DNA from: Moraxella sp. K1664
GTDB taxonomy: Bacteria; Pseudomonadota; Gammaproteobacteria; Pseudomonadales; Moraxellaceae
Direction of reading: 5' to 3'
Length of the DNA stretch: 64,000 bases
Assembly (NCBI RefSeq): GCF_039693965.1
Contig: NZ_CP155576.1
Coordinates: 2,046,001-2,110,000 of the forward strand
The translations under genes and the position numbers were made by a program. Below are positions 50,819 to 52,139 of the stretch, one piece after another. The notes beneath the pieces were generated by a model, which made no database searches, was not told where the DNA came from, and saw only the letters and a program-made list of their open reading frames with translations. How positions within the stretch are numbered: the first letter of the stretch is position 1; the number at the start of each line of letters is the position of its first letter.

Positions 50819-50834
50819 GTTTTCCGTTCGCCCT
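50819..50834. repeat. Left part of REP-like unit interrupted by IS110
   Basis: GTTTTCCGTTCGCCCT is the left end of the same unit whose remainder (CTGAGCTATGCCTG to CGAACGGTTTT, 52075-52139) lies beyond the IS110 element. Removing 50835-52076 restores GTTCGCCCT-GAGCTATGCC, matching unoccupied copies in mfd and at 54156. Confidence 0.88.
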
Positions 50835-50835
50835 T

Positions 50836-51030
50836 GTATCAACCCAACACCAAACCTAGATTATCTGCTAGAATGTTGTTGGGTTATACAAGCAAAGAGA
50901 ACACGGGTTCGCCCTTAGTGTCTTAACACTGGTGCTCAGATGGTGTCCTTTGCTTGTCATCTTAACTCTGAATGGTATCTAAGTGCGTTTATTAAAACAG
51001 ACACTGCATAAACAAGGCAAGAGACAGATG
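50836..51030 (+). ncRNA. Predicted bridge RNA of the IS110 element
   Basis: Three domains can be drawn. (1) A 5' stem: GTAT-AACCCAACA (50836-50849, one bulge) with TGTTGGGTT-ATAC (50877-50889). (2) A target loop: stem ACAAGCAAAG (50888-50897) with CTTTGCTTGT (50948-50957), ACAC/GTGT inside, left guide GTTCGCCCT (50907-50915), inner hairpin AGTGT-CTTA-ACACT (50917-50930), right guide GCTCAG (50934-50939). (3) A donor loop: CATCT/AGATG and CTCT/AGAG (50958-50969 with 51020-51030), left guide ATGGTATCT (50972-50980), inner hairpin AGTG, GTTT-ATTA-AAAC, CACT (50982-51005), right guide ACAAG (51012-51016). The guides match target and donor at the CT core. The 3' stem covers the transposase start codon. 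Confidence 0.82.
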
Positions 51031-52011
51031 ATACACTATATTGGCATAGACATCAGCAAAGCAAAGTTTGATGTTGCATTTATAAACCCAAGCACAAATA
51101 AAGTAAAAACCAAGGTTTTTAACAACAACAAAGCAGGCTTTGATTTACTGCTTGCTTGGTTAAAAACCAATGTCAGCAATCATCTTGATGAGCTACACAT
51201 CATCCTAGAAGCAACAGGGGTTTATCATGAACACCTAAGTGAGTTTCTTGATGATAATAATATCAAGCAAAGCATTGTCAATCCTAACTATGTCCGCAAA
51301 TTTGCAGACAGTTTGGGGGTAATCCATAAAACTGATAAAAAAGACAGCATTATTTTATCAAGGTATGGTTATAGCCACAAGCCTGAGGTTTGGGTAGCAC
51401 CTAGCATTGAAGCCAAACAGCTAAAAGCTCTATTGGCTCGCTTAGAAGCACTCAAAGAAGATTTGCAACGAGAGCAAAACCGACAAGAGTTGCTCTTATC
51501 ACCCAATCTGCCCGATTTGGTTAAAGCATCCATGCAAACAGTCATCAATGTCCTTCAAGAGGAAATTGCCAAACTCACCAAAGACATTGATGACTTTGTT
51601 GACAAACACCCAAGTTTAAAGCAAGACAAAACCTTACTTGAAACCATTGACGGTATTGGTTCTGTTATTGCCAAAGAAGTGGTATGCTTAATACATACCA
51701 AACAATTTAAAAAAGCCTCACAGATGGCTTCGTTTTTAGGCTTAATACCCAAACAAAGACAGTCAGGTGTCTTTAAGGGAGCAACCAAACTGTCCAAACA
51801 AGGGCAAGTCTCTTTGCGTGCTAAGCTGTATATGTCTGCAATGAGTGCCATTCGTTATAATAGCACCATTAAGGCATTTTATGAACGATTACAACAAAAC
51901 GGTAAAACCAAAATGCAAGCCTTATGTGCTTGTATGCGTAAATTGGTACATATCTGTTTTGGTGTTATCAAAACCCAAACATCCTTTGAGCAACAAGTAT
52001 CTTTAAGTTAG
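51028..52011 (+). CDS. IS110-family DEDD transposase/recombinase
   Basis: The 327-residue protein has the RuvC-like N-terminal domain HYIGIDISKAKFDVAFI (first Asp), HIILEATGVYHEHLSEFL (Glu) and KTDKKDSIILSRYG (Asp pair), a coiled-coil middle (about 125-190) and the C-terminal Transposase_20 domain with IDGIGSVIAKEVVC, ASQMASFLGLIPKQRQSGVFKGATKLSKQGQVSLRAKLYMSAMSA, where the Ser of QSG is a candidate nucleophile by analogy with IS621. ATG 51028 was chosen as start; GTG 50983 lies inside the RNA donor loop. The gene looks intact, so the element may be active. Confidence 0.93.
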   Translation: MIHYIGIDISKAKFDVAFINPSTNKVKTKVFNNNKAGFDLLLAWLKTNVSNHLDELHIILEATGVYHEHLSEFLDDNNIKQSIVNPNYVRKFADSLGVIHKTDKKDSIILSRYGYSHKPEVWVAPSIEAKQLKALLARLEALKEDLQREQNRQELLLSPNLPDLVKASMQTVINVLQEEIAKLTKDIDDFVDKHPSLKQDKTLLETIDGIGSVIAKEVVCLIHTKQFKKASQMASFLGLIPKQRQSGVFKGATKLSKQGQVSLRAKLYMSAMSAIRYNSTIKAFYERLQQNGKTKMQALCACMRKLVHICFGVIKTQTSFEQQVSLS

Positions 52012-52048
52012 TTTGTAAGATACTAGATACCAGATACTTAAAAAACCA

Positions 52049-52076
52049 TTGACTTAGGTGGGGTATCATGGTATCT
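52049..52076 (+). promoter_or_regulatory. Outward promoter half at the right end of IS110
   Basis: TTGACT (52049-52054) is followed after exactly 17 bases by TATCT (52072-52076). In a circular form the first base of the left end (T, 50835) completes a -10 of TATCTT, directly upstream of the predicted bridge RNA. In the integrated form the sixth base is G. A promoter assembled at the joined ends is known for IS110-group elements. Confidence 0.65.
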
Positions 52077-52139
52077 GAGCTATGCCTGCGGGTGGCGGAA
52101 AACCGTTATGGGCAGGCATAGCTCACCACGAACGGTTTT
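52075..52139. repeat. Right part of REP-like unit interrupted by IS110
   Basis: CTGAGCTATGCCTGCGGGTG continues to CACCACGAACGGTTTT. TGCCTGC and GGCAGGC and the outer CCGTTCG/CGAACGG (the other arm lies at 50825) make it palindromic. It ends 30 bases before leuA. Confidence 0.8.

What the first reader, a model, noticed from the sequence alone, without database searches (positions are those of the whole stretch)
50836..51030. A complete bridge RNA with guides matching its own target and donor can be read in the IS110 leader
Seen directly: the 5' non-coding region folds into a 5' stem, a first loop and a second loop. Loop 1 carries GTTCGCCCT (50907-50915), identical to the left target strand at 50826-50834, and GCTCAG (50934-50939), the reverse complement of the right target CTGAGC (52075-52080). 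Loop 2 carries ATGGTATCT (50972-50980), identical to the element's right end (52068-52076), and ACAAG (51012-51016), the reverse complement of the left junction CTTGT (50833-50837). Each guide includes the CT core and each pair flanks a small hairpin. This is the target-loop/donor-loop order reported for the IS621 bridge RNA. The agreement of four guides with the observed insertion makes chance unlikely. I know of no description of this particular RNA.
Basis: partly seen in the sequence, partly recalled or inferred. Interest (0 to 1): 0.93.

Follow-up and report, generated by a model that had tools for sequence, protein, structure and literature searches.

The report
IS110 bridge RNA targeting palindromic repeats
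A small jumping gene in a Moraxella-like genome carries, just ahead of its recombinase gene, an RNA whose two loops spell out both its landing site and its own ends; this is a sound new example of the known IS621-type bridge RNA, with 34 natural insertions that test it.

Summary
Window 50835-52076 is a complete IS110-group element whose recombinase is homologous to IS621 (E=1.8e-54). The genome holds 34 near-identical copies, all inserted at CCGTTC(G/A)CCCT|GAGC. The leader folds as a 5' stem-loop, a target loop and a donor loop; its four guides match this element's own target and circle junction. Real IS621 aligns motif for motif. Added here: a promoter re-formed at the circle junction, a discontiguous right donor guide with one compensatory change, and an in-genome specificity test (exact site 32 filled/29 empty; other palindrome arm 0/66). 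Mechanism and fold are those published for IS621 in 2024, so this is a new member of a known kind. A more novel side lead: the pilin invertase Piv in the same genome has a one-loop guide of the same geometry matching all six of its inversion sites.

The parts
50826..50834 (+). left target (LT) GTTCGCCCT incl. CT core 50833-50834, in the palindromic repeat outside the element
   Evidence: 34 of 34 copies share it (2 with GTTCACCCT)
50835..52076 (+). IS110-group element, 1242 bp with one copy of the CT core; 34 copies in the genome
50835..51027 (+). left end / bridge RNA region (about 180-190 nt, probable start near 50841-50846)
50841..50885 (+). 5' stem-loop
   Evidence: z -3.9, 0 of 200 shuffles as stable
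50888..50957 (+). target-binding loop: outer stem, left guide, small hairpin, right guide
   Evidence: z -3.1; helices 1-3
50907..50915 (+). left target guide GTTCGCCCT
50934..50939 (+). right target guide GCTCAG
50958..51029 (+). donor-binding loop
   Evidence: helices 4-6
50972..50980 (+). left donor guide ATGGTATCT
51008..51016 (+). right donor guide AT-(AA)-ACAAG, discontiguous, pairs with CTTGTAT
   Evidence: compensatory change in L098/L102
51028..52011 (+). DEDD/serine recombinase, 327 aa (Pfam PF01548 + PF02371), IS621 homologue
52049..52054 (+). -35-like TTGACT, 17 bp before a TATCTT that exists only when 52072-52076 is joined to 50835 in the circle
52068..52076 (+). left donor (right end of element) ATGGTATCT
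52075..52080 (+). right target CTGAGC (core CT + GAGC)
   Evidence: GAGC in 34 of 34

Best explanation
An IS110-group (IS621-like) transposable element whose leader encodes a bridge RNA. The excised circle joins right end to left end and thereby forms a sigma-70-like promoter (TTGACT-17-TATCTT) that transcribes the leader. The RNA binds the element's recombinase; loop 1 pairs with the genomic site CCGTTCGCCCT|GAGC in a palindromic repeat and loop 2 with the circle junction ATGGTATCT|TGTAT. Strands are exchanged at the CT core and the element inserts. Shown here: the guides, their agreement with 34 insertions, their covariation in homologues, the conserved fold, the split promoter motif and the recombinase homology. 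Inferred from IS621: transcription, RNA binding and catalysis.
For: 34 of 34 insertions at CCGTTC(G/A)CCCT|GAGC with an invariant leader. Guide-target covariation: left 6.48 of 7 non-core bases own versus 2.89 permuted (0 of 10,000), free-position control 6.5 versus 4.5 (max 5.0); right 2.77 of 4 versus 1.85 (0 of 10,000). Left donor guide follows A[TC][GA]GTA changes of the donor, right donor guide changes with it in L098/L102. Structure: 93.0% of cells paired versus 34-47% for slid controls, 25 of 29 pairs with double changes. Real IS621 leader (L145, annotated IS621 family) aligns with the same invariant motifs. Recombinase best PDB match IS621 8wt6, E 1.8e-54. Specificity in the genome: exact site 32 filled/29 empty; GTTCACCCT 2/11; other arm CGTTCGTGGTGAGC 0/66, Fisher p = 2e-13. 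-35-like TTG at 17 bp conserved across homologues, mean score 3.47 versus 2.69 shuffled, max 3.14.
Against: No transcript data. Donor loop is not unusually stable as a single sequence (z -0.5). The 34 copies are near-identical descendants, so they are one RNA tested at many sites, not 34 independent RNAs. No circle junction is present in the assembly, as expected but uninformative. The Rfam 15 scan has no matching family in the window.
Confidence: 0.95

Rival explanations
1. The recombinase itself recognises the palindromic repeat (protein-DNA recognition), and the leader matches are relics or regulatory.
For: The target lies in a palindrome, which proteins often read; no RNA was shown here.
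Against: Guides change with targets in homologues; the other arm of the same palindrome is never used (0 of 66); the fold covaries.
Confidence: 0.02
2. The leader is only an mRNA 5' region or cis-acting end; the matches are short end repeats of the transposon.
For: The leader lies immediately before the start codon, so some RNA will be mRNA leader in any case.
Against: The left target guide matches DNA outside the element and covaries with it; the right guides are reverse complements; the joint match is not seen in shuffles; 25 of 29 pairs have compensatory changes.
Confidence: 0.02
3. A genuine bridge RNA, but this copy or the whole family is no longer active.
For: Copies differ at only 12 sites, all in the CDS, so the expansion could have ended; no circle junction in the assembly.
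Against: Open frames in all copies scored, invariant ends and leader, catalytic motif positions kept.
Confidence: 0.15

Closest known systems
IS621 and its bridge RNA (E. coli; PMC11208160, PMC11208158)
   Same: Left-end location, 5' stem-loop, target loop then donor loop, guide lengths, 29-31 nt guide spacing, CT core, discontiguous right donor guide (9 nt to 7 bases), promoter re-formed at the circle junction, homologous recombinase; both insert in REP-like palindromes.
   Different: Different target (CCGTTCGCCCT|GAGC); right target guide GCTCAG instead of the common GTAG; left donor guide carries the full CT core (ATGGTATCT), whereas most homologues read ATGGTATCC.
ISCro4 transposase (PDB 9t56)
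   Same: Recombinase homology, E 3.5e-49.
   Different: RNA not compared here.
seekRNA of IS1111/IS110 elements (PMC11187229)
   Same: Same concept of a non-coding-region RNA guiding a DEDD transposase; natural reprogramming reported there.
   Different: IS1111 elements carry the RNA downstream of the gene with sub-terminal inverted repeats; here it is upstream.
Piv pilin invertase (Moraxella)
   Same: Homologous recombinase (38% identity to this one); its leader in this genome shows one guide loop of the same geometry.
   Different: Inverts pilin cassettes, not an insertion element; no donor loop recognised.

Membership tests
IS110-group element with IS621-type bridge RNA | DEDD RuvC domain (PF01548) plus Transposase_20 (PF02371) with conserved SG | tested here: met
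IS110-group element with IS621-type bridge RNA | Long left non-coding end, short right end, no long inverted repeats | tested here: met
   193 nt left, 65 nt right; repeats judged by eye only
IS110-group element with IS621-type bridge RNA | 5' stem-loop, then target loop, then donor loop | tested here: met
IS110-group element with IS621-type bridge RNA | Loop 1 guides pair with the insertion site and covary with it | tested here: met
IS110-group element with IS621-type bridge RNA | Loop 2 guides pair with the circle junction, right guide discontiguous | tested here: met
IS110-group element with IS621-type bridge RNA | Promoter reconstituted across the circle junction | tested here: met
   sequence motif only; activity not tested
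IS110-group element with IS621-type bridge RNA | RNA is transcribed and bound by the recombinase; RNA-dependent recombination | not testable with these tools
   needs RNA-seq and biochemistry
IS1111 group | Bridge RNA in the right end, sub-terminal inverted repeats of 7-17 bp | tested here: not met
   right end is 65 nt; RNA in the left end; no such repeat seen by eye

The most novel reading that the evidence does not exclude
Bridge-type guidance in this genome is not limited to the insertion element: the related pilin invertase Piv (genome 222588-223553) also appears to use an RNA loop encoded just upstream of its gene. TTGGTATCCT...AGCTAGG matches both strands of all six identical pilin inversion sites (ATTGGTATCCTAGCTGC) with the 29-nt spacing of IS621. 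A one-loop guide would suffice because both recombining sites are the same.
Probability: 0.55. Interest if true: 0.75.

Novelty: new member of a known kind. Interest (0 to 1): 0.36.

Why it matters
It confirms a published mechanism in a new lineage with an unusually clean natural experiment: one invariant RNA, 34 insertions, and a set of empty exact, one-mismatch and other-arm sites in the same genome, which gives an in vivo specificity profile without engineering. The homologue set shows natural retargeting of both target guides and one compensatory change in the discontiguous right donor guide, independent support for that odd pairing. It also led to a testable idea about how the long-studied Piv invertase chooses its sites.

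Tried and rejected
Rfam scan of the window: no family. Plasmid search for the element: no match, uninformative because near records may be left out. RAYT-type explanation for the palindromic repeat: the three Y1 transposases found have open frames of 145 aa, which looks like IS200 TnpA rather than RAYT (inference from length), so the repeat's origin stays open. Tandem or circular junctions in the assembly: none. Single-sequence folding of the donor loop is not significant; not used as evidence. Literature on this particular element or repeat: none found in the open-access library. Piv homologues for a covariation test: only near-identical Moraxella copies or distant IS elements.

Full report
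What is there. The window lies in a single-contig 2.78 Mb genome. The genus is inferred to be Moraxella: the genome carries a Piv invertase beside pilin cassettes, an arrangement known from M. bovis and M. lacunata, and same-family homologues of the transposase include Psychrobacter. At 50835-52076 there is a complete IS110-group element: CT core, 193-nt left end, 327-aa recombinase (51028-52011, DEDD_Tnp_IS110 8.5e-26 and Transposase_20 2.3e-21) and 65-nt right end ending ATGGTATCT. Its best solved relatives are IS621 (8wt6, E 1.8e-54) and ISCro4.

Observation. Every guide match claimed is at the stated place. Shuffles of the leader almost never give the left target 9-mer (6 of 60,000) or the left donor 9-mer (43 of 60,000), and never the left target guide with its right partner.

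Insertions. Thirty-four full copies share 100% identical leaders and ends; the 12 variable positions are all in the coding region. All 34 sit at CCGTTC(G/A)CCCT|GAGC. The site is one arm of a palindromic repeat. Counting sites over the genome: exact GTTCGCCCTGAGC 32 occupied and 29 empty; GTTCACCCT 2 and 11; GTTCTCCCT 0 and 2; the opposite arm CGTTCGTGGTGAGC 0 and 66. Exact versus other arm, Fisher p = 2e-13; exact versus GTTCACCCT, p = 0.03. The tolerated G-to-A change would leave an rG-dT wobble with the guide (inference). The copies are related by descent, but each insertion is a separate event because the flanks differ.

Homologues were taken from family genomes and from GTDB contigs. Element ends could be placed in 49. 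In 44 non-redundant cases the left target guide agrees with that element's own left target at 6.48 of 7 non-core positions; with pairings permuted the mean is 2.89 and the maximum 3.80 in 10,000. When every leader may choose its best position, own is 6.5 and permuted 4.5 (maximum 5.0), which removes the circularity of locating guides by their targets. The right guide gives 2.77 of 4 against 1.85, never reached. Most homologues use right target CTAC with guide GTAG; the window element (CTGAGC/GCTCAG), L131 (CTCTTA/TAAGAG), L133 and L115 (CTGCGT/ACGCAG) and L044 (CTCAGG/CCTGAG) are naturally retargeted on that side.

Donor loop. Left donor guide and left donor change together (ATGGTA, ACGGTA, ATAGTA). 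The right donor guide reads AT-NN-ACAAG and pairs with CTTGTAT through a two-nucleotide bulge, the 9-to-7 pattern described for IS621 (PMC11208160). In two Salinisphaera copies (L098, L102) the donor is CTTGTGT and the guide AC-GA-ACAAG, a compensatory change; the two copies come from one genome, so this is probably one event.

Structure. Alignment A3 of 20 leaders including real IS621 (L145:1559-1749, the leader of a record annotated as IS621 family) keeps 93.0% of cells paired in the RNAalifold structure against 34-47% when partners are slid by 1-3 columns; 25 of 29 pairs show double changes. The structure was predicted on this same alignment, so the percentage leans in its favour, but the size of the gap and the double changes do not depend on that. 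The IS621 leader letters were first recalled from memory as a search query and then confirmed by finding them in E. coli records; only the fetched record was used in the alignment.

Promoter. Joining right end to left end creates TTGACT-17-TATCTT, with the -10 spanning the junction. A TTG-type -35 at 16-18 bp is conserved in homologues with ATGGTATCT ends. The integrated copy lacks this promoter, so the RNA should be made mainly from the circle, as reported for IS621 (PMC11208158).

Verdict on novelty. Bridge RNAs were described in 2024 and predicted in 85.7% of IS110-group elements; seekRNA work reported natural reprogramming. No paper on this element was found in the open-access library, which does not exclude one elsewhere. 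This is a new, well-supported member of a known kind.

Side lead of greater novelty. The same genome has the Piv invertase at 222588-223553 and six identical sites ATTGGTATCCTAGCTGC in alternating orientation at 223562-233272: one complete pilin gene and five silent 3' cassettes. Sequence left of ATTGG is mostly unrelated among the sites, though two pairs share their left flank, so the shared site begins where the putative guide begins. The leader just before piv carries TTGGTATCCT, a small hairpin, then AGCTAGG (reverse complement of CCTAGCT), with 29 nt from TGGTATCCT to the core complement, as in IS621. A generic loop scan of that leader finds exactly the six sites and nothing else in 14 kb; 200,000 mononucleotide shuffles gave none. 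The open-access bridge RNA papers cite Piv only as a homologous invertase. The only Piv leaders available are near-identical, so covariation could not be tested, and the match lies in the pilin coding sequence, which is conserved for its own reasons.

Noticed in passing
genome G000:C1:222510-222545 (L149, L150, L157) and L046, L047, L059: Leader of the Piv pilin invertase carries a one-loop bridge-RNA-like guide (TTGGTATCCT ... AGCTAGG, IS621 spacing) matching all pilin inversion sites; Piv may be RNA-guided.
   Followed up: partly
genome G000:C1:223562-233272 (L157): Six identical, alternately oriented inversion sites: one full pilin gene plus five silent 3' cassettes, a pilin shufflon larger than the two-version pilA reported for M. 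bovis (PMC9585708).
   Followed up: partly
L145:1501-1749; L155, L156 (E. coli): An IS621 variant has a 72-nt tandem duplication of its leader whose junction is its own left-target-guide CT core joined to its own left end, as if it had inserted into its own guide; the same junction occurs at three different loci examined (about 46 records match at 99% or more), so the variant seems mobile.
   Followed up: partly
element positions 554-951 (window about 51388-51785), 34 copies: All 12 polymorphisms among the copies lie in the coding region, in recurring combinations, which suggests exchange between copies or hitch-hiking of a few ancestral variants.
   Followed up: no
window 47374, 54156, 16623, 47084(-): Further GTTCGCCCT arms of the same palindromic repeat; one lies inside the mfd-like gene and is translated as TVRPEPVEG.
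   Followed up: no
L056 (G135): Left flank GTATAACTCT against guide GTATAACCT: the copy's target is one base off register, possibly an imprecise or secondarily changed insertion.
   Followed up: no
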